Positions 1,881 to 51,000 of a DNA stretch of 64,000 bases are shown in pieces. The notes beneath the pieces are model-generated. The model worked only from the letters and a program-made list of their open reading frames with translations. It was not told the origin of the DNA and ran no database searches. The DNA is taken from positions 6,483,902 to 6,547,901 of the forward strand of contig NC_088646.1 of NCBI RefSeq assembly GCF_964019385.1, read 5' to 3'. Within the stretch, counting starts at the first letter, position 1. Each line of letters starts with the position of its first letter. The translations under genes and the position numbers were made by a program. Source of the DNA: Sycon ciliatum (taxonomy: Eukaryota; Porifera; Calcarea; Leucosolenida; Sycettidae).

Positions 1881-2404
1881 CGTGGTCCCCGCACTCTAGA
1901 TACAACGCGGTCCCCGCACTCTAGATACAACGCGGTCCCCGCACTCTAGATACAACGCGGTCCCCGCACTCTAGATACAACGCGGTCCCCGCACTCTAGA
2001 TACAACGCGGTCCCCGCACTCTAGATACAACGCGGTCCCCGCACTCTAGATACAACGCGGTCCCCGCACTCTAGATACAACGCGGTCCCCGCACTCTAGA
2101 TACAACGCGGTCCCCGCACTCTAGATACAACGCGGTCCCCGCACTCTAGATACAACGCGGTCCCCGCACTCTAGATACAACGCGGTCCCCGCACTCTAGA
2201 TACAACGCGGTCCCCGCACTCTAGATACAACGCGGTCCCGCACTCTAGATACAACGCGGTCCCCGCACTCTAGATACAACGCGGTCCCCGCACTCTAGAT
2301 ACAACGCGGTCCCCGCACTCTAGATACAACGCGGTCCCCGCACTCTAGATACAACGCGGTCCCCGCACTCTAGATACAACGCGGTCCCCGCACTCTAGAT
2401 ACAA
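1881..2404. repeat. 25-bp tandem satellite, 21 copies
   Basis: The unit reads CGCGGTCCCCGCACTCTAGA followed by TACAA. I count 14 units from 1881, one 24-bp unit with a single C deleted (2231-2254), then six more units to 2404. Only the first unit carries another change (CGTGG). Such near-identity implies recent amplification or continuing homogenisation. Each unit contains the short dyad GCGG..CCGC and an XbaI-type TCTAGA. There is no reading frame of interest and no transposon terminus is seen next to it. Confidence 0.95.
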
Positions 2405-2487
2405 CGCATATTCACGTGTACGGTACGATCAAGCTGTAGCTAGCCAGTTTAGCTTTAGTCCTATTGCGCATGTATTCTGCGGCATTA

Positions 2488-12557: not shown

Positions 12558-15500
12558 GAACAATATCACTTCATCAAATTTACTTCACTGCCGTACCTGC
12601 TCCGTTTCACATCATGGCCGTTGGAGTCAAGTAAATATTCAAAATCCGCTTGTGCGCTTTAAAACAAAATACAGATCAACACGGAGCCTGAAAGTTTCTT
12701 GCACCAAAGTTCAAGGCCATATAAATCATAATTAAATGATGCAGCACAGGATGACTGTAATCACACAGACACAACCTGATTCTGTGGAAAATGTGTATCA
12801 CACACATGCATACCCGTGTAAGAAGTGCATACCCGTGTAAGAAGTGCCACTCGCACATGTACATGCACATTTATAACAAAAAAATCCGACCACCGTCACC
12901 AAGTTCACGGCAACCTATGCCGACACAAGAGGCATTTGTTTGTGCAACTCTATTCTGCAGCTCCTTACAGTGCTGGTTCTTGCTCAGACTACTAAGTTCT
13001 ACTGACTTTCGGCCATTCACCGGTTATGACGGCTTCGACGGCTTGCCCGCGTCATAACCACTGTACTACTGGTAACATGTACCTACCTGTGCCTCTTGTG
13101 CAGAACCCTGAAAGGCAATGCGTCCGCCTTTCTCCAGCAGAATGGTGCTATCGAACTGTACAAAGATATCGTATCGTGGCTGATGTATGACGGTTACAAC
13201 GGTCAGATTTCCTTCACTGGCAATGAGCTTCAACAGCTCAATTACCTAAACAGACAACCACAGCAAACCAACACAATCCAAGTTGTACTCTACATGCATT
13301 CTGTGGCAAGACATTTTCATTCCGAATGTATTCTAGTTTCCATTCGTCTGGAATTTGACTCTTCAATATGCCTGGCCCCATTGTAAACCCCCTGACCCCA
13401 TTGTAAACCCCCTGACCTCGTTATCAACTGACCCCTTTGCAAAACCCCTGACCCCATTGTAACCCCCGACCCCACGGTTAACCCCCTGATCCCGTTGTAA
13501 CCACCCCCCCCCCCCTGACCCCGCTGTAAACCCCCCGACCCCGTTGTAAACCTACCTCTCTGCTGGTGACACTATCAAGACCGCTGGTGGGCTCATCTAG
13601 GAACAGGATGGTTGGGTCTGCCACAAGTTCCATTCCGATATTGACACGTTTGCGCTGGCCACCAGAGATCTTCTTTGCTGCCGACTGGGAGCCAATAACT
13701 GAATCACGTATTTTCGACAGCCCCAGGAGATCCTCAATGTCGCCGACCTGTGAAGCAGATGTGGATTGATAGTGCAACACAAAAATAAAGGCCAGCTGAG
13801 AGCTTAGCAAGTGTCATTGCATCTTGTCGCCAATGTCACACACCTTATCAACTGTCCTGCAGCACATGTTTTAGACTCTTTCAGCCAAGATGGACATGCC
13901 GCACAAAATTGTCCTCGTTTTACGCCACACAAGCCGGTCATGCATAGCATGTAGTGTACTGAGTCACACTTCATTGTTGCAGCGAACCACACAGGAAGGT
14001 CTATGGCATTTCGCAGTTACAGAACCAAATGGACAGAAAAGAAAATATTTGTGTGCATTGATTGGAATGAAGTCAAATACTTAGAGGATATACAGTAAAA
14101 CCAGTCGAGGCGACCACTCTGATAAGGCGACCACCTGTCCTAGAGGACCACTGAAACCAGGACCAAGGGATGCCATTTCCAGTCAAATGACCCTGGATAA
14201 GGAGACCACAACCAGTACACAGTGACCACGTTTTGAAGGTCCCTTGAGCAGTGACCACGTTTTGAAGGTCACTTGAGCAGTGACCACGTTTTGAAGGTCC
14301 CTTGAGCAGTGACCACGTTTTGAAGGTCCCTTGAGCAGTGACCACGTTTTGAAGGTCCCTTGAGCGGTGACCACGTTTTGAAGGTCCCTTGAGCGGTGAC
14401 CACGTTTTGAAGGTCCCTTGAGCGGTCGTCTTACACAGGGTTCACTGTAGCATGCTCTGTGGCGAACAATTTTTGTGGGTCACCGGAAGAATAGGGCGGT
14501 TCTCTTACCTCTTTCTCAATCTCTTTGCGTGTCTTGTGACGTGGTAACCGCAGCAGTGCCTGGAACATCAACACCTCGTGTACGGTCAGTTCGGTGTGCA
14601 TGACATCGTCCTGGGGTACGAAGCCCAGCACGGTCCGGTACTGCTCAATGCTGTTTGCCCCCTTGCCGTTTATTCGCAGCGCGCCCGTGCTCGTGGCGTA
14701 ATATGCCTTACCTACGGGTGGTCAAGAGAACAGTAGATAAAGCAACATTGCATTCATGATAGTCTTTCCCTGCTTGCATTATGCACTGCTAGCTTCATAA
14801 TGGCCTTCTTCAGTGCACGGAGACTACACAGCAGCACATCCACTATCCTTGATCGACTCAATTCATCACTGCCGCTACCACCACCACTGGCGCCACCGCC
14901 ACCACAACCACCACTCGCGGCCGCCACCGCCACCACCACCACCACAACCACCACTCGCGGCCACCACCACCACCACCACTACCACTCGCGGCCGCCACCA
15001 CCACCACAACCACCACCACTCGCGGCCGCCACCGCCACCACAACCACCACCACCACCACCACTCGCGGCCGCCACCGCCACCACCACCACCACTCGCGGC
15101 CGCCACCGCCACCACAACCACCACTCGCGGCCGCCACCGCCACCACCACCACCACCACCACCATCACTCGCGGCCGCCACCACCACCACTGCCACCATTG
15201 GCACCCCGTGACCACTGCACTGATACTGTAACAACAGCGAGTTTGCCCTGATGAAGCTCTGAGGGCAAACATTGGGAGATCATAATATCATTGTTGCAGC
15301 ATACACATCATGCGGAGGTGGTGGTGGTGGTGGTGGTGGTGGTGGTGGTGGTGATGGTGGTGGTGGTGGTGGAAGCTAAGCGTGGTGCGGCATCACCTGA
15401 CATCAACGACAGCTTTTCTTCCTGTACTTCTCAACATCATCCATGGTTTGTGTTGATCAATCAATTTCACCCAGCACACCGTGGCCATGCCCATGTATGG

Positions 15501-16217: not shown

Positions 16218-18790
16218 GCTGTTGCTGCTGCTGCTGTTGTTGCTGCTCGTTGTGGTGGTTTTGTTGTTGTTGCTGCTGCTCCTGCACCTCCTGGAGATAT
16301 TTCTCCACTTCATCCTCCTCCGGCTGCTGTTCCTGCTGTTTTATATGCGTTTCGGGTAGACTGGACTGGGAATTTGAGTCACTAAGATGTGTGCTATGTA
16401 GTGGCGATACCACATTACTGGGTGGAGACTGAGCAAATGACAACGGGTTAAGAAAGCTTGCTACATTCAGTGTGAATCCTGGCGATGGTGGCAGGGAAGA
16501 CATCAGTGGTGATGGTGGTAAGGAAGACATCGGCGGTGGGGGTGGTAAGGAAGACATCGGTGGTGACGGTGGTGATGGTGGTAAGGAAGACATCAGTGGT
16601 GGGGGTGATGGTGGTAAGGAAGACATCAGTGGTGGGGGTGATGGTGGTAAGGAAGACATCAGTGGTGGGGGTGGTGGTGGCGGGGGTGGTGGTGGCAGGG
16701 AAGAAACTGGTGATGCTGGCAGTTGGTCATGAGGCTCAGCAAACACATCCCCGTCATCTCCGCTCAGCCGACGGGAATCGGAGGGTTCCGTGAGCGATTG
16801 CCCTTGACTGCTGCTAGTGACCCATGTCTGAGTGCTGCGGACTTGAGCGTGCTGTATTCCGGTACGTCTTGGTGAGCATGGAGGGCTATGACACCAGTCG
16901 TTGCTGAGGACGACACCAGTGTCGTTATTCTCCTCCACGTCTACCACCTCGTATGTTCCGTTCTCGTCGATGTTGACATTGTGTTCTCTCAGGTAGTCAA
17001 TGATCTGGTGTCGTATCCATTGCCGTTTTCTGAAGAGAACGACAATGCCAACCAGTAGCATGGCCACGGCTATGCAAACCACCAGGCTGCTGGCTATTGC
17101 CTTGGGTGCACTCGAACTCTTGCTGCATAATGACAGTGTAGGGCACGCGTGTGGCTTGTCCGAGCCCTCGCGGCAGTAATGGCCCTGCGGGCACTGTATC
17201 CTCTCCACCGGTGTTGGGCAATAGAATCCCGAACGGCACGGTTGGTCGGCATTGGCGCCACCACACGCAATGTAACTCCCAGCACTAGAGTTGCTCGACG
17301 TGTTACTGTTGGCACCCTGTGGCCACATAAAACATGACATGTTTTATTGTCATGTGTGCGGTAGCAGTTAGGAAACTTGGAACAGCATCAAAAGGATAAT
17401 TATGCATTACAGTCAACTTCGGTAATAACGACTGCGGATATAACGACAATTCGCGAATAACGACAGACTTTTCATGCCCAGAGCAAAGTCCCATCCCACT
17501 GTAATACATATAATGAGACTTCGGGTATAACGACACTTCGCGAATAAGGACACCTTTTTGATGCCCTCCGAGTGTCGTTATAAGCGAAGTCGACTGTACA
17601 TGGATTACGCTCGCAGACAAGGCCAAGTGGCTCTAGCAACGTTCAGTACTGGTACGCATCTACTCAGAGTCTCATACTGCTACACAATCATTACCGAAGA
17701 CTAAGTAGAACTGAGTACAAACAGTGGACTAAGGTTATACAGTTAAGCTGGTTCAGGTATCAACGACTAAAATGATCTTAACCACAGTTTTTCCAAGCAC
17801 CGATCATGTCATCAATGCCCCTCCCGTTCCCATGTTTGTACAGTCATGATTCATGGCACTGGCACATGGACGTATCCGGCAAAAACTGTTAGCTGCAGTT
17901 TGGTCAATGAAATTCAACCTCTTTGATAGAGCAGTGCGGCATTGAGTACCATGGATAGTAGAGAGCCGGTGTTCCGTAAAAGTTTCAAATTCAACGTCAA
18001 CATTACCGTCAACATCTCACGCTTGCATCCAAAGTTCGCACGCCATTTTCCGCAGCAAAAGTTCACGTCACGCCAAAGATACTGTGCAAAATCTTTCTAC
18101 TAAGTCCATGGCAGGCACGTGCTATTGTGTTGATGAGGCTGCATTTCATTTTCACTTGGAAATATTTTACCAATGGATTTCACCCCCTGATTTCAGGAGA
18201 CTGCTTTTTCATAAAAAAAGAAGAAGAAGATGTAGACCAGTGTGACTACTGTATACAGTGTAGTACTAGTAGTACTGCAGTCATGTAGTGACTTCATCTT
18301 GGACATGGGGTTGCCGGGGACAAGGGGAAGACATTGCACTCACCTGCACCCATCTCTCACTTCCCGCGTATGGCTGACAACACGTTTCTGAGTTGGTCGC
18401 TGAGCATTGGCCAGTCTCATTCTGAACAGCAACGTGTTGCTTGCAGTAGGCACCCACGGAGCAGCGCACCATACACAGGGCATTCTCTGGGCAGAAGAAG
18501 CCGTCCGGGCACGGTAGCGTTGCGTTGTCAGCCCCTGCGTAGTAGCCACCGTGACAGGCGTTGTGCCTCCATGGTCTTGGCAGACATGAGCTACTATTCA
18601 CTGCCTCTGACGGACTGCTGCAGCAGAAGCTGGCGAACGGAGAGCCGGTGCAGTTTAGATTGAGGCGTCGCACCGGTCTCTCGCCATTCTCCACACATAT
18701 GCCTTTACAGAGGACGGGCAAAAGAATCAGTAGCAGCAGCAACGTCCGCAGAGCTGACAGTCCTGCAAGGGACATGCTTCCTTCACCCAT
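10993..18790 (-). CDS. Half-size ABCG transporter, ABCG24/28-like, with cysteine-rich ectodomain (7 exons)
   Basis: Exons in transcription order: 18790-18344, 17316-15762, 14711-14509, 13747-13556, 13245-13087, 12478-12200, 11745-10993 (stop TAG). All are phase-compatible and total about 1195 aa. Residues 1-30 form a signal peptide with a Leu-rich core. A Cys-rich extracellular part follows with [10 protein letters not shown] and [10 protein letters not shown], then a single TM helix near 222-244. A long linker holds MSSLPP repeats and polyQ. Then comes one nucleotide-binding domain: Walker [10 protein letters not shown] (about 653), Q-loop FVPQDD, signature ISGGQRKR (about 763), Walker [14 protein letters not shown]-loop HQPR (about 820). 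The last two exons encode the ABC2-type membrane domain. The order signal peptide-Cys domain-TM-NBD-TMD is that of plant ABCG24/28; half-transporters of this family dimerise. The substrate is unknown. The start is the first ATG of the open frame before the signal peptide. Confidence 0.9.
11791..11852. repeat. (GT)31 microsatellite
   Basis: A pure GT tract in the last ABCG intron, about 50 bp upstream (in transcript sense) of the acceptor at 11746. On the transcribed sense strand it reads (CA)n. Confidence 0.95.
12487..12554. repeat. (CA)34 microsatellite abutting a splice acceptor
   Basis: On the plus strand it is CA; in the ABCG transcript it is (GU)n ending only a few bases before the acceptor CTCCAG at 12479-12484. 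The repeat therefore occupies the place of the polypyrimidine tract. Confidence 0.95.
13371..13555. repeat. Imperfect tandem repeat, about 18-20 bp unit
   Basis: Variants of CCCCTGACCCCATTGTAAAC recur about nine times in the ABCG intron between the exons at 13245 and 13556. One variant includes a C13 run. Units are diverged and of uneven length. Confidence 0.8.
14093..14447. mobile_element. pogo/Tigger-like MITE containing a tandem array
   Basis: TA flanks both ends (14091-14092 and 14448-14449). The left terminus reads CAGTAAAACCAGTCGAGGCG; the right terminus, reverse-complemented, reads CAGTGAACCCTGTGTAAGAC. CAGT..AACC ends with TA duplication are typical of pogo/Tigger elements. The right half is occupied by seven 29-bp repeats (14223-14425) whose unit contains the GACCAC motif of the terminus. 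It lies in an ABCG intron. Confidence 0.75.
14223..14425. repeat. 29-bp tandem repeat, 7 copies
   Basis: The unit begins TGACCACGTTTTGAAGGTCC and ends CTTGAGCRG. The copies differ at two or three positions only (CACTTG for CCCTTG in one, AG/GG at the end). It lies wholly inside the MITE 14093-14447, next to its right end. Confidence 0.95.
14878..15195. repeat. CCACCA/GCGGCCGC minisatellite
   Basis: CCA/CCG triplets are broken at intervals by CACTCGCGGCCGC, so NotI sites (GCGGCCGC) recur about eight times in 300 bp. It lies in the ABCG intron between exons 15762 and 14711. All six frames stay open here only because of the triplet composition, so the long His/Pro and Val/Gly frames are artefacts. 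Confidence 0.95.
15315..15372. repeat. (GGT)n microsatellite
   Basis: GTG/GGT triplets with one GAT interruption, in the same ABCG intron as the CCA minisatellite but of opposite strand composition. The two could pair to form a large stem in the transcript. Confidence 0.9.
16158..16250 (-). repeat. In-frame polyglutamine tract of the ABCG transporter
   Basis: TTG/CTG repeats on the plus strand read CAA/CAG on the coding strand. They give an uninterrupted run of nearly 30 Gln followed by a second, broken Gln-rich run (to about 16290). The upstream part is pure CAA and therefore likely to be length-polymorphic. It lies in the cytosolic linker before the nucleotide-binding domain. Confidence 0.95.
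16480..16715 (-). repeat. Coding minisatellite (MSSLPPSPP repeats) in the ABCG linker
   Basis: Plus-strand units of GGTGGTAAGGAAGACATCRG type recur about eight times. On the coding strand they give repeats of M-S-S-L-P-P with variable Pro/Ser tails, ending in an 11-residue polyPro run. All variants keep the frame (unit lengths are multiples of 3). Confidence 0.9.
17410..17596. mobile_element. pogo/Tigger-like MITE (family 1, copy a)
   Basis: TA flanks both ends. The left end is CAGTCAACTTCGGTAATAAC; the right end is its approximate reverse complement (GCGAAGTCGACTG). The body is 187 bp with internal repeats of TTCGCGAATAACGACA. A close copy is at 29409-29588. It sits in the first ABCG intron. 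Confidence 0.85.
17597..18343. other. Remainder of the first ABCG intron
   Basis: No exon or clear element is seen. A small AG-rich run (about 18216-18230) and a GTAGTACTAGTAGTACTG dyad near 18260 are the only structure. Confidence 0.5.
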
Positions 18791-26963: not shown

Positions 26964-29858
26964 TCAAAAAAATCGGTTCATATCCGGACATATTTGCTGC
27001 TGGGATAATAATGCTGGGCAACTGAAATTGCAAAGCTTGTGTTCAATTGCCTCCGACATAATTTTTGAAAATGCAAACTTAGAGGGCCAATAAAGACGGA
27101 ATGACGGAATGCTGCTCCTCAAATGTGCATGATCAAGCTCTCTTTGTACAATATCCACATTGCTACAGAACCCACCTGCATGCTAGGGTGACAACACAGG
27201 AAGAAGGACAGCGGCACTTGGTACTGATAAACTACCAGCAGCAGCTGGAACACTGATGCTAACAAGAAACCGTCACCCACTTTTCTCTTCCCTGACGAAC
27301 TTGGTGGTTTTTGGCTGATTTGAAGGACTACTTTACACTTCAGTTACCTGGTGGCTTGTTGGGAGATTGAAAGGACTGAGCCAGTAGCTCAGCCAGCTGT
27401 AGTTCACACTGATCATGTTCGCTTGGCGCCATGAATAGGATCATCTGTGCTGTGAGGTTGCTATTCAGTTGCCGGAGCTCATCAGGTACTTCGGGCGGGT
27501 AGGTGCAGAGACGACGCATTGCTGGGTGCCCAGTTCTGCTGGGGGTTTCCCCCGATGATGCTGCTCTGTGCTTAGCCGGCACAGGGGCTGTGTGGCTACG
27601 TTGCTCCGGCTGAGCATGGCCACGACGCACTGAGGATGATGCACCGGTAGATCCTAATCTATCAGTATGTAGCAGCAGAAGGTATACGAAAAGAGAGATT
27701 GGATCCAGTCCACATTGTATTCATGCATGCAAGGAGCAAAACGCCCAGCAACACCATTGATTTATTCAAACCTGGGCTGAACAGAAAAGCCATCCCAAAC
27801 CACAAACAAAGAATTTTAGATTTTCTTCTCTGGTAGAATCATTGTTGAAATGTGTATTTTTCGTTGGCTGAGCGTAGCGAATGAAAATGAAAATGAAACG
27901 AGTGAACAAACTACTGTGATCTGTATGTTTCTGTTGTGTGTGTGGGTGTGTCTGCCAGCTAGCACGCAAAAATTAGCGTAGGCTATAAAAGTAATTATTC
28001 CAGGAGGGGATGGTGGTCGGGAATTTTACGGCTTGTTTTTCCTTCCTCAAGCAGAAACAACAGGAGTTCAGCCATCAGCACAATAATCAGAGTTCAGCAA
28101 GTGTTTTTATCCTCTTGGCTGTTGTTTCTGCATTTCTGCATGAGGAAGGAGAAAGAAGCCGTAAAATTCTACCGGAGAAAATCTAAATTAAAAAGAAGAA
28201 AATCTAAGTTAAAATTCTTGATTACTTTTATAGCCTACGCTGGCTGTACTTCACACCTGAAATGATTGGTCAACCGGCCTCAGCCAATCAGAGTTCAGCA
28301 AGTGTTTCCCGGCTCTTGGCTTGCTGATGGCTGTTGTTCCTGCACTTGCTCTGATTGGCCCATTATTTCAGGTGTGTAAGACGGGCTATAAAAGTAATCA
28401 TTCCAGGAGGGGATGGTGGTCGGGGTTTGGGATGGCTAGACATTTTTAGATTTTCTTCTCCGTGAAATTTTAGTATTCTTCTCCGGTAGAATTTTCCGGC
28501 TTGTTTCTATCTAGCCATTAGCAAGTCTGTGGCTTGTTTCTATCTAGGCATTAGCAAGTCTGTGTGAGGAAAGGAAACCCATCGTCGTTACTGTATTGCC
28601 TTACTGCGACGTGTTACCAACACCGACTCGTGGAGTCCTGATCTGACCAATGATAATGCATGAATGCACGAATGTATCAATGCAGGAGTTGCGTGCTGAC
28701 CGGCACTCACCTTTCAGTTCTTGATTCCGACGGCCTGACAGTTCCACCAGCACCCGATTTCTGCAAAGACACACAGAGGAGCGAGCACTATCAATATCTA
28801 AAGTCTTTTAGGACCAGCCTCTGGACAAACAAATTATGTATTTCTCACCGGCCTAGAGCAGCGGGATGGGTGAGAAATGATTTCTCATGCATCCCACTGC
28901 TATTGCAAATAAGGCATCCAATGTCCATTACTCTTTTCTTCAGCATCTGTATTTGTATTTGTGGATTCTCCACAGGCCTTAGCCTAAATCGAGGGAGTCT
29001 CCACATTTTGCTCAATACCAGGCAGAGAGCAGAGCAGTTTTGTCGGCTCGCCTGTCAGCTCGCTCATCTTCAGTCAGCTTTTGAGTCTCACCAGTGTCCC
29101 TGCCCTCCCGCCCTTCATGTCTGTGCATCTTGATCTTACCTATTCCGATTTTGCTATGATATGGTGCCCTGTTTCCGTGCTGCCATGTTGCCCTGTCATG
29201 TTGCCACTAAGGGTTTCACCCGGTTTTTCACTCATTACTATATCTGACAGTGGGGGAAAGTGCAGTGCCCGTACCGACACCTGTAACTACTGTGTGTGAG
29301 TTTAAAAGTCTGTTTGTCTGCCTGTCTGTGCCTAGGAGTGTCTGTGTGTATCATTCACTTGGGTGGAGATTGCACAAGTACCACAGCGAGTATGCCGGAA
29401 ATCATGTACAGTCAACTTCGCGAATAACGACTGCGGATATAACGACAATTCGCGAATAACGACAGAATTTCCATGCCCAGAGCAAAGTTCCATCCAACTG
29501 TAATAATGAGACTTCGGGTATAACGACACTTCGCGAATAACGACACCTTTTTGATGCCCCGCCGAGTGTCGTTATGCGAAGTTGACTGTACACATTTTAC
29601 GAGCACTGCCCTGCCTTGTCAACCCTACAGATACAACCCAACGTTACGATACTTCAACACACACACTGTGGTGTCTCTCTCTGTAGTACTAATGTTACTA
29701 CTCTGCACTACTTCACTATCTATGTATTGCGCATGCGCACACGAGCTTCTTGTTCCTATTTTAGTCTGGTCTTCTTCCAAGGCTTTTTCCAATAACAATA
29801 ATGACTTGATGATGTTTGATCAATGGTTGGTACATAACACACACACACCTTGACCTTG

Positions 29859-40959: not shown

Positions 40960-42655
40960 TCATGGCGTTCTGGTCTTGACAGTTCCGTCTTCCATTCCGA
41001 AGTAGGCAACGTTAGCCATGCCAACGAAAAGCCCAACTTCAACAACACCTGAGCACAAGGCAAGAAAGCATACACTCGTAAGAATTGCTCAACTGCATGT
41101 GCCGGGACAGAGGCTACTTAGAAGTAGAAGATTTACTGCACACATTGAATCAACACAAATTCGGACGAGACATTCACAGTAAAACCCTTGGCGCACAGAA
41201 TACTTCATTGCAAAATCCTACGACACAAAGTGTAAGATGTATACGAGTCGTATTTATAGTACTTGCTCACCAGCAACGTTATTGATGTCGCTCTCCACTT
41301 GTTTCCAGTCGCGCTCCTAAGGATACAAGACGCACGGTCAAATCAAAACATACTCTATTTCAGCAATTTTAGGTGCTCAAAATTTTCGGTATGAGGGCAA
41401 AAAGCCAGGTTGGTGAGCAGATAGTTTAGGTACAGAGAAGCAGTTCCCTATTGGATTATGTGCGTTAGTGTTTGTTGGGTGCATTGAAATTTTAGGTACG
41501 AAACAGACGTACCGAAAATACCGAAAATAAAAGTACACCAAACACTTGTGAAATGACAGTACTTCAAAACAAGCAAGTGCAGTACAACCGGTCCTAACCG
41601 GACGCCCTTGGTGCAGCGGAAACCGTCCTGACATGACAGGAGTCCACTCAACCCAGGGATGCAGGTTCGATCCACAGCACTTTGGTGCATGAATTTTGTC
41701 CGGTCAATACAGGATTCCGCTTGGTACAGGGTCCGGCAAACACCGGTTTTACTTGTACATGGGCAGGTGGAATGCAGACAATGAACAGTCTAATTCAAAC
41801 ATACCGTTCAACAGGAACTTTTCCGGGGCTGACTTCAGTCAATACGATTCCCATAGAGTTTTCTGATTCTGATGATTGCTTTAACAGTGCGTGAAACTTG
41901 GAGCAAAAACACTTTTTCATCCTCTTATTCTTGTTAGAGTTTTCTGATTATTCGAACCTTGGACTGTCCATTCGTGCCTAAATATAAGTGCTATGAAATT
42001 GGTGTAAAGCAGTGACATAGAAAGATGTAGTATTCCTGCTGATAGTTTGAAGCTTTCAACGGCGCATACGAACTGTTCTGTCAACTTCACCGGCCAGTTC
42101 AGTTTTGCACGAAACATTGTCCTTGTCAGTTTGGAGTGTCCGCAGCACATCCAAAAATCTTCCATTTCCCTCCAGGGTTTTTGTGCCTTGCAGACTGCTA
42201 GAAACGCACAGTTAAGGGCACGGCATGTAGTACACCAGACCTTCGTGTAAGAAAAATCCAGGAGAGTGAACAATCACTCTCGCTATCCTCTCAAGGAGAG
42301 TGGTGGGAGAGCAGTCCCCACAACCCTCCCCCCCCTCCTCCCCAAAAAAGTCGCTCGCCTTATCTATCCAAGGTGAGCACAACACGGGTTTTTTCAGCAT
42401 CTTGCCATAACCCAATCGGATTCAATACCCAATACAGTAAAACCTGTGACTACCGACCACCCCTTGGGGCCAGCAAAAGCGGTCTTTAGTAGCAGGTGGT
42501 CTTTAGTTAGAGGTTTGCACCGCGCGACCATATACATGTATGGATCCCATTATATGATATGTATATCAAAATGCAGCTAATACAATTCCCAAGACTTGCG
42601 CAATGCCATTCTTATTTCAGGTCAAACAACACTTGGAGAGAAAGACGGAGAGATG

Positions 42656-42702
<47 letters not shown>

Positions 42703-45025
42703 ATTTTTTTGCGGACATCAAATTCAGCTCCTACTTCTGAAGCCTGGAGTCAAACGTTCCCTGTGGAAGTTTCGTTTTGCGCTGGGCTTCAAATTTGTTC
42801 ATGCGATCAATGGTACCGACTGTCCTTTGTGCGACTTCTTGATTGCTTTAACGCGATTCTCCAGCATCAGGACCTTGCGGTGCTGCTTTGTTTCTGGATT
42901 CCTTGATGCAATCGTCGATTCGGCTGTATGACTGGGGTGACAGAGCCGCTCAGTCTTCGTTTCTCCTCCGAGTAGTAACATCAATCAGAGAGCGCTTTAG
43001 ATACGCTCTCCAAGACGTTTCCTATCATGTTTATTCTTGACAGTGCTTGAAATTCTGACAGGTGTAGTGCAGTCCACACCAACTCCACAGTCAAAATGAC
43101 CTGCGTTCATTTCTTCAGCTGTAGTATCGAAAGATGCCTTTCAGGACCACGGAAAATCATCAAAATTTCAAGAAGGAGCTTCGAGCAACATTTGATTTCC
43201 TACATCGCGGTCGCTAGTTACGGGTCAAAAATCGTCTTTGGGACAAGAAAAGGCGGTCGCTGGTCGCGTTCAGCAGGTAGTCGCTAGTTACAGTGCATTT
43301 TGAATGTGAGACCGTCCGTGCCTGGCGAAGTGGTCGGTAGTACCAGGCTGGTCGCTAGTCACGGTGGTCTTTAGTTACAGGTCTTACTGTAGTACCACGC
43401 TGGTCGCTAGTCACGGTGGTCTTTAGTTACAGGTTTTACTGTAGTACCAGGCTGGTCGCTAGTCACGGTGGTCTTTAGTTACAGGTTTTACTGTAGTACC
43501 AGGCTGGTCGCTAGTCACGGTGGTCTTTAGTTACAGGTTTTACTGTAGTACCAGGCTGGTCGCTAGTCACGGTGGTCTTTAGTTACAGGTTTTACTGTAG
43601 TACCAGGCTGGTCGCTAGTCACGGTGGTCTTTAGTTACAGGTTTTACTGTAGTACCAGGCTGGTCGCTAGTCACGGTGGTCTTTAGTTACAGGTTTTACT
43701 GTAGTACCAGGCTGGTCGCTAGTCACGGTGGTCTTTAGTTACAGGTTTTACTGTAGTACCAGGCTGGTCGCTAGTCACGGTGGTCTTTAGTTACAGGTTT
43801 TACTGTAGTACCAGGCTGGTCGCTAGTCACGGTGGTCTTTAGTTACAGGTTTTACTGTAGTACCAGGCTGGTCGCTAGTCACGGTGGTCTTTAGTTACAG
43901 GTTTTACTGTAGTACCAGGCTGGTCGCTAGTCACGGTGGTCTTTAGTTACAGGTTTTACTGTAGTACCAGGCTGGTCGCTAGTCACGGTGGTCTTTAGTT
44001 ACAGGTTTTACTGTAGTACCAGGCTGGTCGCTAGTCACGGTGGTCTTTAGTTACAGGTTTTACTGTAGTACCAGGCTGGTCGCTAGTCACGGTGGTCTTT
44101 AGTTACAGGTTTTACTGTAGTACCAGGCTGGTCGCTAGTCACGGTGGTCTTTAGTTACAGGTTTTACTGTAGTACCAGGCTGGTCGCTAGTCACGGTGGT
44201 CTTTAGTTACAGGTTTTACTGTAGTACCAGGCTGGTCGCTAGTCACGGTGGTCTTTAGTTACAGGTTTTGCTGTACATGTACAATGTAGCTGGCAAATTC
44301 GTTCTGGAAAATCGCCGTACGCACTACAAATGAAAGCTGTTCGGACCACAACTTTAGTTTCCCTTCATCAGGGACAATGACACACGCAATGGGAAATTGA
44401 GACAAATCGCTAAGATCCGATCTTAACATGGCATGGTATTTTTTGTAGTATTCATCGTAGAGCGCTCCTTTCTTCTGTAGCTGACCGCTAAAGACCTGTG
44501 CCTGGCGTCACACAGGTCTATGCATGCCCGGACTGTCACGCAAGAGAGGGAAATCCTTTATGTCAAGATACTATGATTGCCACCCAATTGCGGAAGTGAA
44601 AATTTGCAAAGGTACGTAAAATACCTTGCGAGTGCCGTAACTTCACTATTGGACCTCGGATCGACTTCCGATTTGTTGGAGCCGACAGTTGAGAACTTTC
44701 TAATGCGAATAGACCTTTCTATTACTCGATTCCGTTCAGGGAAAGCCGGGTTACGAAATATTTGAGTGTTTTCAGAACTTCATAGTGATGCGGATGCGCT
44801 CGAAATTCTCAAGGCGTGCGACGAAAAGCGCGCCCTAAAAGAAAATAAGGAGAGCGAAGGCGCGCGAGAGCGATCGCTCTCCTTTTACCAGATGGTCTGT
44901 ACACATTGTCACAGCTTACCTGTGTGGCATCAAACTTGACATCTAGGATCACATTGCCATTGTCCGTTATCACTGGTCCCTGCCAAAGCAGAACAGGAAC
45001 CCGACGGCACATACAAGCACACACA

Positions 45026-45069
<44 letters not shown>

Positions 45070-48000
45070 GATATCACTCAGAAGAAAATGATTGCCCTGT
45101 GGTAACATACTTGATGATGATGTCATATACCCAGTTTTCAAGTCTACTGGTACTTAAATTAATTATGTAATCTGTCACGAAGTTCAAACTTCGGAAAAGA
45201 TTAGCTATGAGACTTGGGCAACATATGAATTAGACGCAGATTGAGAATTAGATGCAATAAAACTCAGCCGGTTGTTATTTGCACACTACACTCATATCGT
45301 GCTTATCCGGGCAGTCCGGGACCGGGCACTACCCATAACATGACGGAGATACTCTGAATCATGTACGTTTTGATGGAGAAGGGCCAGAGGTCTGGCATAT
45401 ATGTATGTTGTCACTATTTCCACAAAGAAATATGGCAGGACACCAGTGATATTTCTACTAAACTCGCCCACAGGGTGCCCGGTAAACCGAGGTGCGGATA
45501 AGAGAGACATGAGTGTATATTCTAACTCAACTGCACTAGCTAGGGGTGCTACTCACGGCTTTGTTCTTGGCCATACGCAACACGGGCTCGAATCCCATGC
45601 GCTCCATCTTGATCGCCACAGGCTTGTAGGCAAACGGCACTACTTCCACAGGCAGTCCTTTCTCCCACTGCACAGGACAACACAGGGGAACTGGAGTTTG
45701 CTGGTGGTTGCCAGTGAGTAGTGACAATGCCATGCATGCAGTATGTTCAATGTTTTCCGGCATAAAACCTGATGCCAACTTTTTTTAGGGCATACATCAC
45801 CACATTCACATAACAACAGTCACCTTGTGAATAACGACCTCACGTATAACAACAACTCACGAATAACACACACAATCTTCAGACCTAGTGATCATTTGAC
45901 TACATACTCTTAAAACCTCAACAGGTACCTAACAAGAAAAGGGGACCAAGGAGCTACACATTATGCTATAATGTCCACTAACACCACCAGTTACTTTACA
46001 ATCAGCTCAAGCGATAACATTGCACGTTCTGACGTTCGACACCTAACTGGCAATCAGCTCCAGCACGTCAGTTGCCAGTTAGGTGCAGAACGTCAGAACG
46101 TGCAATGTTATCGCTTGAGCTGATTGTAAAGTAACTGATGGTGTTAGTGGACATTATAGCAAAATGTGTAGCTCTTTGGTCCTCTTTTCTTGTTATAAAT
46201 GAATCCTTGTCTCTCCACCCAAGTCTAACTAGATACCTAACAACTTATGCATATTCGAGTACCTAACAACTTATGAATATTCGAGTACCTAACAATACTT
46301 CCCATTCCACGAATAGCGACAAATCGCGAAAAATGACACTTCTCTGATGCACAATCGAGGGTTAGGCACCGGCGGATTATGCCGGCAGAAAAACTGGCAG
46401 AATTCGGTACTTTTTTTGGTAAGTTTCATGCATGTTTGGTATGTGGATAAAGAAATGGAGCAGAATTCGAGGAATTGCCCGCCATAAGGTTTGTATGGTT
46501 CTGCCAATTTCACTGCTTTTCGAGCAGTATCTGCCACCTTTTCAAGCAGAATCCGCCGGTCCCTATCGAGGGTCCTCATCCGCTAGGTTGACTGTGAATG
46601 TAGCAATGAGATGAATGTTCAATGCTTGCTGAAAGGTTTACACCAGGGCGGATATACCACAAGAAACACTGAGGCACAACTTGCTCAACACAGCTGCTCT
46701 TACCTGCTGACCAAGACGCTCAGAGTCCTTTCTGCAACGAGTAGGAGAAGACAATGGAGGACAACAAGAGCAGCGTGAGTAGGTGATGGGCCAACCATGA
46801 CGATTGTACACTTTGCAGTGACATGTCCTACCTGTAGTCAGCGACGACAACAAACTTCTTCGCTGCAGCTGCGACGACCTTCTCCTGAGTCTGACAGCCA
46901 CTGGCAAGGAAATAGATACACAGAAAAAAAGGAATGCCGAAGAAATCAGTTTCAGGGGTATAGGAATATTTCAATCCCTCGTACCCCAATCAAAACTGCA
47001 TGGCAGACAATTAGGAGGAATCGCCTGCACAACAATTGAGCGAAGGGCATTAGGAAAGAAACAATTTCAGAGACTGACACACACATACACACGCGTGCGC
47101 GCGCAATACTTACCCGCCACCTTTGATGCAGGAAAGGTGGGCATCCACTTCATCCGCTCCATCAATAGCCACATCAAGCTACAACACACAGGCAAGAGCA
47201 GGCACAACCAAAGACATCCATAATTCATACTCTGCTTTTCAAAATTGGCAAAAAACACCCAGTCAACCTGTCTACCGCCGGTATATCACAACACACTTCG
47301 ACAAAGTACACATTTCAAGAAAGTAAATGACGATGCTTGTATAGCATACAAGTAGATTCATACAGATTGTGACTAGGAGTTGTGATTCGTCCTATGCAGA
47401 TGATACATGTACAGTGAATTTGTTAAAGTGCGATGCAAAGTTCACACACGAGATTTCGCATCAGGCTTCGGAAAGCAGGAAGACAAGAGTATAATGCCTG
47501 TCGTGTTCACCTCCCTCGGACTGACGTAATAATAATTTGACAGTAAAATATCACTCAGAGGATCCGGAATAGTACAGGATCCGAAGCTCAAAAATAAAAT
47601 TGGGTCTGCCACTTCACTCCGAGTATTTGCCGCTTTCAGGGCTGATAGGTGATGGTTATAGAAGGTCAATTTTGTTTGTTGGCCCTTCTGAATCGGGGAA
47701 GGAGACGAGCGGCGAGAGGGTTTTCGTCGACGATTTCGCAAGCCTTCTCAAGCGTTCTCAAGAAGGTCGCAAATTTATTTTCGCCGTGCGTCCGTACGCG
47801 CATGGCTTGAGCATGCACACATTGCGCACCCACGACAAACATTTGAAAAATTTAGAAAATGATGACGCCGTAGAAAATGACGACGCTGGCCGGGGAACTT
47901 ATTTGAGGAAGCACGAGGTCTTTCAATTTCATTCCCACGCGAGTAAGCATGGAGGAAGACGAGAATTGTGCCTCCTGTGCACAAAGTCCAGGTAGTGTTG

Positions 48001-51000
48001 GGCATTTAGTGGCTTCAGCCAGTACTCAGGTTTCGGAAATTTCATGGAGCTCATGTTTGTGCCACTGTGTGAAGATCGAAGGAAGCGAAAAGGAGGAGAA
48101 AGTAAATTTCACGAACACCAGCTGGTCTCGAGTGGTATCTGCTGCCAAAATTCGCCAGGACGGCACATGGGCCTTTCTCTGCCAGGAGCAGTGTAGCACG
48201 GATGAGAGCACCCCGCGTGGCTGGTACCATAGGCGCTGCTATGCAGCCTACACCCACAAGAAGACTCTGAGTCGTTTTGAGGGAGAGGAGAGTGGTGGCC
48301 TTGCCAGCAATGTTGGCGCAGAGGAGGTGGGTGACGCAGATGCCTGTGAGGATGAACCTCCCAAGAAGCGTGTTATGACACGAAGCAAAGTGACAACCAT
48401 CGACATCACTCTGTGTATAATATGTCAACAAAAAACAAAAACAAAGAACCGGAAAGCTGAACCGCTTACCCTCTGTTCAGAATTCCGTGCTGGCGAAAGC
48501 TTGATCCGTGCGGCAAATGCACGTGGAGATGAAGCAGGCCAGCGGATTTTACTTACCCTCCAGGAGGGCAGTCCCGATTGTGTAGCATCGGACATATGCT
48601 ACCATTTCTGCTGCTACCGTAACTACACTCATTCTAGTACGGTGGCAGCACTGGAGGCAAAGAAGACGACGGCAGTTGCAGACGACAATGTGTACGATAG
48701 AGCCTTTGAGTGGCTGGCTGTATGCATGGAGAAGGAGCTCTTCAGTGAGACAGAAATACGAGCGATGCGTATGGACAGCCTGACGTCCAAGTACAGCGCC
48801 AAGCTGGCAGAGCTCGGAGCTGCAAGTCAATACCGACGATGGCTGCTGAAGAAGCGCCTGTTGGAGCATTTTGGAAAACGCATCAACTTCGTCCGTCCTG
48901 GTCCATTATCACCCGAGAGCGTTGTAAGCAGCTCCTTGACAGAATCACAACTGCTACAAGTAGTTGGTGCAGCAGTAGCCAAGGCTGAGGCAGCCCAGCA
49001 GTGCGCCGACGAATATGCTGGAGATGATATGGCGGATGAAGATGCACCTCCAGCTATTGATAGCAGCTGCAAGGTACATGCCTTCCACACAGCCATGGCT
49101 CTGAACAACGCCATCTGTGATCAGCAGCCCACAATACCCACCATGCCACATGCCAGTGATGTCGTAAATGAGAATGTGCCAGTGCCAGACATCCTCTACA
49201 ATGTGCTTGCCATGACCATTGTCGGCCCTGAGAAGTGTGACATTGGTGACCTGACAGACTCCCGTGTCCATGTCCCTACCGACATCCATTGCAAGATTTT
49301 GGCAATTGCTGAGGACATTGTGTATGCTGCAACTCGTGGATCTATTCTGACACCAAAGCACGTAGCTTTGGCGCTTACTGTCCACCACCACACGAGGAGC
49401 AAGCACATGGTGGATCTTCTCAACCAGTTCGGCCATGGCATATCGTATTCAAAGCTGCGAGAAGTAGAAACCGGGTATTCTCTCGAAGTAGCAGGAAGTT
49501 CCGCAGCCAGCAGTGTTGTAGTACCCCGTGGCATTTCCCAGCATGGAGGTGATGTTCATTTCTGCTGGGACAATAACGACCTCAACGAGGAAACTCTGAG
49601 TGGCCAAGGGACGACACACTGCACCAACGGCATTGTGCTCCAGCACTCGCTGCCCTTCCAGGACGATCCGTGTCCACCAGAAAGTACGAGCCGTGCCGAG
49701 CCAGGTAACCAACGCCGACCGCGAAGTGTTGCCCCACCTGCAGTTCCGAGCCTAGAATACAACTGCGGTGAATTATGGCTATGGCTGTCAACACACCTAA
49801 CCTGTTCACACATTGTATATAAACTGCTTGTACATAGCTTGGCTTCTAAAGCGATGACGCTATCATCCTACATTTTATTCCAATGTACATATTAAACTGG
49901 GCATATTGTCCATGAATTGCACAGCACTGGACATGTCTTCCTTACTACAGTTGTAGTATTTATTCCCGTAGCTATGCAGAAGACGTTACTTCAGTAACGT
50001 CTGGCGCTAGCCAGGGTCCACACAGCTTTAATTTGGTATTTGTGTGTTTGTTTGTGTCACGCCTGGCGCTATCCGTATCTGACGGCAAAAAAGCATAGGA
50101 TGTTATACATTTTTCAATTCTCCTATTTTTTTTCAGGCATATCCTGGGATTCGAACCCGCACTATCGCCCTACATGCATTCCCCCATACACTTCGCATTC
50201 ATACCCATTCTTCCAAGTTGCTTCACGTTATTATCTTGCGTTTGAAAGCCCTATTTGAATATTGCGGGCAGCTGTATGGCCAGCTGTGTTTGATGGTACG
50301 GTACGGTACGGGAGACGGTGTCGTATTACCCTCGATCGTACCTGTCCCGTACCTATCCCCTACCGTACCGTACCATCAAAGACGGCTGGCCACAATGCAT
50401 ATTCAAATAGGGCTTTCAAATGCAAGATCACAATGTGAAACAACTTAACTTGGAAGAATTAGTATGTATGCGAAGTGTATCGGGGGATGCATGCAGGGTG
50501 CGCGATAGTGCGGGTTCGAATCCCAGGTTATGTCTTAAAAAAAAGGATTTTTTTAAAGAATTTATAACATCCCTATGCTTTTTTTTGTCTAGGTCATCAA
50601 GGCAAAAAAGCATAGCGTAGGGCCCTGAGCTTCCAAGCTCTCTCGTTTATTTCATTTTCGATTGAGTAGTGACTACAATGCGTTTATATCATTTCTACTC
50701 TAACTCTAATTTAATCGAGTGCTATTGAAGGTGTGTGTGCCTGAGAGAGAAGCAGGGAAAGGGTCCAAGCTTACCTTCGCAGAATGATAGGTGTCCCTCG
50801 TATCGATCGTATCAACGAAATTCCAATCAAGAAAACATTTGAGATCACTCGCGAAGCGGCGTCAAACTACACGACACGACGGGTAGTTTGTTGGCTGCCA
50901 TTGCGAGTGGGTAGTGGAAGGACCAAACGATATCTAGGCTAGGCTTACGAAGTCCCTGTGCTTTACTTCTACAAGAGCGAGAGTAAACTTCTTGACCAAG

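What the first reader, a model, noticed from the sequence alone, without database searches (positions are those of the whole stretch)
43342..44275. Transposon terminus amplified into an 18-copy satellite
Each 52-bp unit contains the complete right terminal repeat of the surrounding pogo/Tigger-like element, including the CTG-TA boundary. The array therefore looks like a satellite born from a TIR. The units are nearly identical except at the array edges, the pattern expected from recent unequal exchange. If the cognate transposase is active elsewhere in the genome, the array would offer 18 binding sites in one intron.
Basis: partly seen in the sequence, partly recalled or inferred. Interest (0 to 1): 0.75.

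Follow-up and report, generated by a model that had tools for sequence, protein, structure and literature searches.

The report
Transposon end expanded into repeats
One end of a small jumping gene has been copied head to tail 18 times inside what looks like an intron, and the same kind of end-copying is seen at other copies of this jumping gene in the genome; it is a striking case of a known process by which mobile DNA seeds repetitive DNA.

Summary
The array is real: 18 units of 52 bp, 99% alike. It forms the right end of a TA-flanked 1,839-bp element (42435-44273), a shortened relative of a 2.6-kb pogo-family transposon in the same genome. The relative's transposase has DDE_1, HTH_Tnp_Tc5 and CENP-B_N domains, and a piece of its N-terminus survives in the window. 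So 'terminus of a pogo-like element amplified in tandem' holds. Two corrections. It is not a lone satellite: the genome holds 1,976 exact 52-bp junctions, and all eight 52-bp arrays read adjoin an element body on its right side. And the terminus is not what is favoured for copying: a 34-bp register without it has 2,779 exact junctions. The right end consists of three ~17-bp modules, similarly placed in a sister family with a 56.5%-identical transposase. Local unequal exchange between modules fits best: arrays are uniform within loci (first 100 of 2,779 hits), and duplicate loci hold 15 and 5 units. Transposase binding to the modules is inferred. Precedents: Tetris TIR-220 and tandem-TIR MULEs.

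The parts
42433..42434 (.). TA flanking the left end (target-site duplication)
42435..44273 (+). whole non-autonomous pogo-family element, 1,839 bp (955 bp without the 17 extra units)
42435..42461 (+). left terminal inverted repeat
42481..42514 (+). two 17-bp modules GGTCTTTAGTAGCAGGT / GGTCTTTAGTTAGAGGT of the left end (cores at element positions 47 and 64, as in the sister family L034)
42802..42912 (-). remnant of the transposase N-terminus, 24/37 identical to the L043 transposase
43332..43348 (+). module R1 GGTCGGTAGTACCAGGC at the start of the array
43340..44275 (+). 18 units of 52 bp, each ending CTG|TA; TRF reports 43337-44275
44224..44275 (+). outermost unit, forming the present right end (one private change, TTTTGCTG), with the flanking TA
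40963..45670 (-). probable RPIA gene; exons read by eye at about 45670-45554, 44979-44920 and 41052-40963 (positions worked out by hand from the translation); the element lies between the last two
   Evidence: (PF06026, E 0.00056, 20 bits, below its cut-off of 26); RPIA motifs recalled

Best explanation
The feature is the right end of a deletion-derived, non-autonomous pogo-family element. That end consists of three ~17-bp modules (R1-R2-R3) followed by TTTTACTG|TA. Shown: the array is part of a transposon copy; the same end is tandemly expanded elsewhere in three registers (52 bp = part of R1+R2+R3+terminus; 34 bp = R1+R2; 34 bp = R2+R3). Inferred: misaligned exchange or slippage between modules, or between a CTGTA/GTA inside R1 and the CTGTA at the terminus, made a first duplication. 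Unequal exchange within the locus then lengthened and homogenised it, leaving the edges behind. Some arrays may also have moved with their element. The modules are probably binding sites of the CENP-B-like DNA-binding domain of the transposase; whether extra sites help transposition is open.
For: Autonomous relatives L029 and L043 share the left ~210 bp (85.5-86.5%) and the pre-array right part (about 90%) of the window element; the L029 right end has one unit. Domains DDE_1 4e-39, HTH_Tnp_Tc5 8e-15, CENP-B_N 2e-6; only PDB match at E 0.01 is CENP-B 1hlv, 2e-10. L016 is a 923-bp sibling with a single unit, 90.4% alike over 960 aligned columns. Insertions of one short sub-family carry different right ends: 46, 9 and 4 units of 52 bp (L024, L023, L015), a 34-bp array (L009), 34-bp doublings (L010, L023), mixed (L021). 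Exact junctions: 1,976 / 2,779 / 18 (controls 0). L019 and L020 share flanks and first-unit variants but have 15 and 5 units. In the first 100 of 2,779 listed 34-bp junctions (15 loci, all on C1) the variable dinucleotide is uniform in 8 of 10 multi-hit loci and 93 of 95 hits show the locus majority; 0 of 10,000 shuffles reach this. Edge units differ more than interior ones: 19 changes in 16 against 52 in 102, permutation p 0.018.
Against: In 7 of 8 arrays the array consensus equals one common 52-bp sequence, although window and L016 bodies differ by about 10%. Independent local amplification with neutral drift would let the consensuses diverge, so common descent of arrays, selection on the unit, or exchange between loci is not excluded. 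The L019/L020 comparison is uneven: left flank 7.3%, body 8.2%, right flank 1.8% different, so conversion on the right side may be involved. Five of 14 array loci listed on C1 0-7.25 Mb have no exact body match and were not read. No population or long-read data.
Confidence: 0.65

Rival explanations
1. One or a few master elements acquired the array once, and it spread by transposition; length differences came later.
For: Same unit consensus in 7 of 8 arrays despite about 10% body divergence between window and L016.
Against: Insertions of the same short sub-family carry single, 34-bp and 52-bp right ends; 34-bp junction variants are locus-specific in the 100 hits listed; L016 and L029 have one unit.
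Confidence: 0.3
2. Selection on the element: more transposase binding modules at one end raise mobility, so expanded copies are over-represented, as proposed for Galileo, Tetris and tandem-TIR MULEs.
For: Module positions similar in a sister family with a 56.5%-identical transposase; unit sequence conserved across loci; precedents in PMC4079207 section 19 and PMC3310237 passages.
Against: No binding or mobility data. 8 of 15 exact-body loci on C1 0-7.25 Mb have no exact 52-bp junction within 600 bp. In tomato MULEs an extra solo TIR was judged 'death on birth'.
Confidence: 0.3
3. Transposase itself drives the amplification by joining the CTG end to the TA inside R1 (self-targeting or nested insertion), giving the exact 52-bp step.
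For: The junction CTG|TA|GTACC is what joining an end to the TA of R1 would give (sequence); otherwise only CTGTA or GTA is shared.
Against: No nested left end at that TA (0 exact hits); the terminus-free 34-bp register has more exact junctions (2,779 against 1,976).
Confidence: 0.1
4. A pre-existing independent satellite was captured by the element.
For: Five of 14 array loci on C1 0-7.25 Mb were not read and have no exact body match, so body-free arrays are possible there.
Against: The unit is the element's own last 50 bp plus TA, present once in L016 and L029. Of 62 units not preceded by C at -3, 58 are one-step variants of the usual junctions; that pattern misses cases with C at -3.
Confidence: 0.05

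Closest known systems
Tetris / TIR-220 of Drosophila virilis (PMC4079207; abstract and section 19 seen)
   Same: Tandem repeats inside a transposon's terminal inverted repeat, copy number differing even between two alleles, feeding satellite-like arrays; extra transposase sites proposed
   Different: Tetris is foldback-like and its 220-bp repeats lie inside an outer terminal domain; here one end only, pogo family, and the 52-bp unit includes the terminus and TA
MULEs with tandem TIRs in plants (PMC3310237; abstract, twelve passages and section 4.2 seen)
   Same: Terminal repeat duplicated in tandem, repeated motifs inside the TIR of one family, slippage considered
   Different: Mutator family, long TIRs, mostly one extra copy on both ends (48 of 61 elements); no TSD at the internal TIR; solo extra TIRs rarely amplified there
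MITE-borne tandem repeats: Xstir and miDNA4 of Xenopus (seen only through passages of the review PMC12628747)
   Same: MITEs carrying arrays of variable length; replication-based or microhomology-based growth proposed
   Different: Repeats derive from internal sequence (Xstir) or a captured repeat (miDNA4), not from the terminus
CENP-B box satellites and pogo/Tigger elements (recalled; of PMC7325037 only passages on other points were seen)
   Same: Pogo-type DNA-binding domain (1hlv match) and ~17-bp modules in tandem DNA
   Different: Module sequence is unlike the CENP-B box as I recall it; no link to centromeres tested

Membership tests
pogo family (Tc1/mariner superfamily), non-autonomous member | TA target-site duplication and terminal inverted repeats | tested here: met
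   TA on both sides; 29-nt arms including the TA, 86-90% complementary
pogo family (Tc1/mariner superfamily), non-autonomous member | Autonomous-type relative with DDE_1 plus CENP-B-like/HTH_Tnp_Tc5 DNA-binding domains and matching ends | tested here: met
   L043 domains, L029 ends (left 13-mer with two differences, right exact), homology to the window element, remnant in the window
pogo family (Tc1/mariner superfamily), non-autonomous member | Mobilised by that transposase | not testable with these tools
   shared ends only
TIR-derived tandem array (Tetris TIR-220, tandem-TIR MULEs) | Tandem unit homologous to the element's own terminal repeat | tested here: met
   unit corresponds to the last 50 bp + TA of single-unit elements L016 (2 differences of 52) and L029
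TIR-derived tandem array (Tetris TIR-220, tandem-TIR MULEs) | Copy number varies between copies of the element | tested here: met
   4, 5, 5, 9, 15, 16, 18, 46 units in eight loci
Independent satellite DNA | Arrays exist without the parent element | tested here: inconclusive
   8 of 8 fetched 52-bp arrays adjoin a body and 58 of 62 odd-flank hits are junction variants; but 5 of 14 array loci on C1 0-7.25 Mb were neither read nor matched to an exact body
CENP-B box satellite | Bound by CENP-B or a CENP-B-like protein, centromeric | not tested
   no binding or centromere data

The most novel reading that the evidence does not exclude
The genome shows in progress how a pogo transposase's ~17-bp binding modules are turned into tandem DNA in several registers, a living parallel to the route by which CENP-B-box satellites could have arisen; the arrays may act as binding platforms or sinks for the transposase or a domesticated relative.
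Probability: 0.15. Interest if true: 0.75.

Novelty: new variant of a known kind. Interest (0 to 1): 0.45.

Why it matters
One genome holds many copies of the same element (495 exact copies of a body 20-mer). Those read show a single end, doublings, and arrays of 4-46 units, and three registers were found. That makes the birth of tandem DNA from a transposon end countable. The transposase has a CENP-B-like DNA-binding domain, so the case bears on how CENP-B-type binding sites come to sit in satellites.

Tried and rejected
Rejected: terminus-specific (cleavage-dependent) amplification. I had begun to favour it, which found the R2+R3 register in only two loci; one search then showed more exact junctions in the terminus-free R1+R2 register than in the 52-bp one. 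Not supported: nested self-insertion into the TA of R1 (no exact hits). Not reached, because the server did not answer: body-to-array junction counts (and a shorter form in 135, 137, 139, 140), a wider orphan pattern, and a protein search for intact transposase copies. No match to a 26-base terminal sequence in viral contigs. A script timed out without result. Host species was not determined. I saw no report of a pogo element with a terminus-containing tandem array in the listings of my paper searches; these cover open-licence papers only, and I opened parts of four papers.

Full report
OBSERVATION. The array is at the stated place: Tandem Repeats Finder gives 43337-44275, period 52, 18.1 copies, 99% matches. 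Cut at the TA, 18 units run from 43340 to 44275. Fifteen equal the consensus; the first, second and last each have one change. The whole is bounded by TA|CAGTAAAACCTGTGACTACCGACC at 42435 and by TTTTGCTG|TA at 44273, so the array is the right end of a 1,839-bp element.

WHAT THE ELEMENT IS. The window's genome (538,412,230 bp, 313 contigs; organism not named) holds 6,831 exact copies of CAGTAAAACCTGT against 20 of the reversed control. A DDE_1 search scored 150 of 225 candidates, all 150 matching. Among the 30 loci fetched, six encode close relatives of one transposase (L029-L033 on C11, L043 on C5). L029 is bounded by TA-flanked ends of the same kind, the left 13-mer with two differences and the right one exact, giving 2,596 bp. 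The window element matches L029 and L043 over its left ~210 bp (85.5-86.5%) and its pre-array right part (about 90%). The L043 gene carries DDE_1, HTH_Tnp_Tc5 and CENP-B_N, and its only PDB match at E 0.01 is the CENP-B DNA-binding domain. A 37-residue piece related to this protein's N-terminus survives in the window on the minus strand (24/37, E 5e-14 for that comparison); Pfam itself finds no domain in the piece. The element is therefore a deletion derivative of a pogo-family transposon. Whether any intact transposase gene remains was not established: in L043 and L029 no single listed frame covers the whole gene, and the genome-wide protein search did not complete.

THE MODULES. The right end of a single-unit copy reads R1-R2-R3-terminus, modules of 16-18 bp of the form GGTCnnTAGTnnCAGGT. 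A circular self-comparison of the 52-bp unit alone is only suggestive: best offset 18, shuffled p 0.068. The left end has one inverted and two direct modules. The core GGTCNNTAGT occurs 41 times in the window element and nowhere else in the window. In the sister family L034, whose transposase is 56.5% identical, the left-end cores lie at the same positions (21, 47, 64), and the right-end ones at 21, 37 and 54 against 21, 40 and 58 in L029. Similar spacing under sequence change suggests binding sites; this is inference.

ARRAYS IN THE GENOME. Exact 52-bp junctions number 1,976. Eight 52-bp arrays were read in full, with 4, 5, 5, 9, 15, 16, 18 and 46 units. All eight adjoin the element body, on its right side; a left terminus was recognised with at most two mismatches in seven of them, not in L017. 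The list (first 100 junctions) covers 14 array loci on C1 up to 7.25 Mb. Seven of them lie within 600 bp of an exact body, 7 of 7 on its right and on the same strand; conversely 8 of the 15 exact bodies there have no exact junction nearby. Two more of the 14 (L015, L022) were read and have a slightly changed body. The other five (near 3.375, 3.697, 3.857, 4.023 and 7.244 Mb) were not read, so I cannot say whether they have a body. Exact junctions of a 34-bp register made of R1+R2, without the terminus, number 2,779; exact junctions of R2+R3 number 18, in two loci. Of the 15 R1+R2 loci in the listed first 100 hits, five were paired with a body among the six bodies compared, 5 of 5 on the right (one of them is L023, already among the eight). 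Two others, L009 and L010, were read and adjoin a body. So the right end is prone to expansion in several registers, and the presence of the cleavage site in the unit is not required.

HOW IT GROWS. L019 and L020, 47 kb apart, share flanks, body and two first-unit variants, so they are copies of one insertion; they hold 15 and 5 units. The variable dinucleotide of the 34-bp junction is uniform in 8 of 10 multi-hit loci of the 100 hits listed, with 93 of 95 hits showing the locus majority, a value reached in 0 of 10,000 shuffles; the two exceptions are the first listed unit of their arrays. L024 repeats a three-unit pattern. Edge units carry 19 changes in 16 units against 52 in 102 interior units (permutation p 0.018). 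These point to growth and homogenisation in place. Against a purely local story, 7 of 8 arrays share one consensus (L015 differs at two sites) although the window and L016 bodies differ by about 10%. Either arrays are young, or some were carried along by transposition, or the unit is constrained. I could not separate these.

INDEPENDENT SATELLITE? A pattern for units not preceded by C at -3 gave 62 hits, all listed; 58 are one-step variants of the usual preceding triplets (expectation for random triplets 19%), leaving four, of which two lie 18 x 34 bp apart in one place. Arrays starting on fresh flanks thus seem rare, with the caveats that a flank with C at that place would escape and that the five loci named above were not read.

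SETTING. On the minus strand, exons resembling ribose-5-phosphate isomerase lie on both sides (PF06026 at 20 bits, below the cut-off of 26), so the element probably lies in an intron of that gene. Exon edges were read by eye and the gene's motifs are recalled.

COMPARISON. Tandem repeats inside transposon ends are known: Tetris TIR-220 (PMC4079207), tandem-TIR MULEs (PMC3310237), and MITE-borne arrays reviewed in PMC12628747. What differs here is the family, the one-sidedness, the number of units, the inclusion of the complete terminus plus TA in one register, and a modular end that accounts for three registers. I rate it a new variant of a known kind.

Noticed in passing
window 14091-14449: A second TA-flanked element (CAGTAAAACCAGT...ACAGGGTTCACTG, about 355 bp) with seven 29-bp repeats (14220-14423) near its right end; its unit resembles part of the 178-bp element at L011, so arrays near transposon ends are not confined to one family.
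   Followed up: partly
L012:4658-5165: Another element with CAGTAAAACCTGT ends carries about six 17-bp repeats (GCGACCACTCGACCATG) close behind one terminus.
   Followed up: no
window 1884-2407: 21 nearly perfect copies of a 25-bp unit (GGTCCCCGCACTCTAGATACAACGC); its ends were not examined.
   Followed up: no
window 17509-17553, 29417-29546: Short arrays of a 15-17-bp unit like AATAACGACACTTCGCG, a period close to that of the modules here.
   Followed up: no
window 47907-49895 (+): Open frame of 662 aa (stop to stop) with no Pfam match at E 0.01.
   Followed up: no
L029-L033 (C11:29.5-30.0 Mb): Five copies of the autonomous-type transposon family lie within about 450 kb, with very similar outer flanks in L029, L031 and L032, suggesting segmental duplication rather than separate insertions.
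   Followed up: partly
L019 / L020: In this duplicated locus the right flank is far less diverged (1.8%) than the left flank and body (7-8%), as if a conversion tract reached from the array outwards.
   Followed up: no
C14:6506660-6513685, 8596538-8597252: Several variant units spaced by multiples of 34 bp cluster on C14, perhaps longer arrays there.
   Followed up: no
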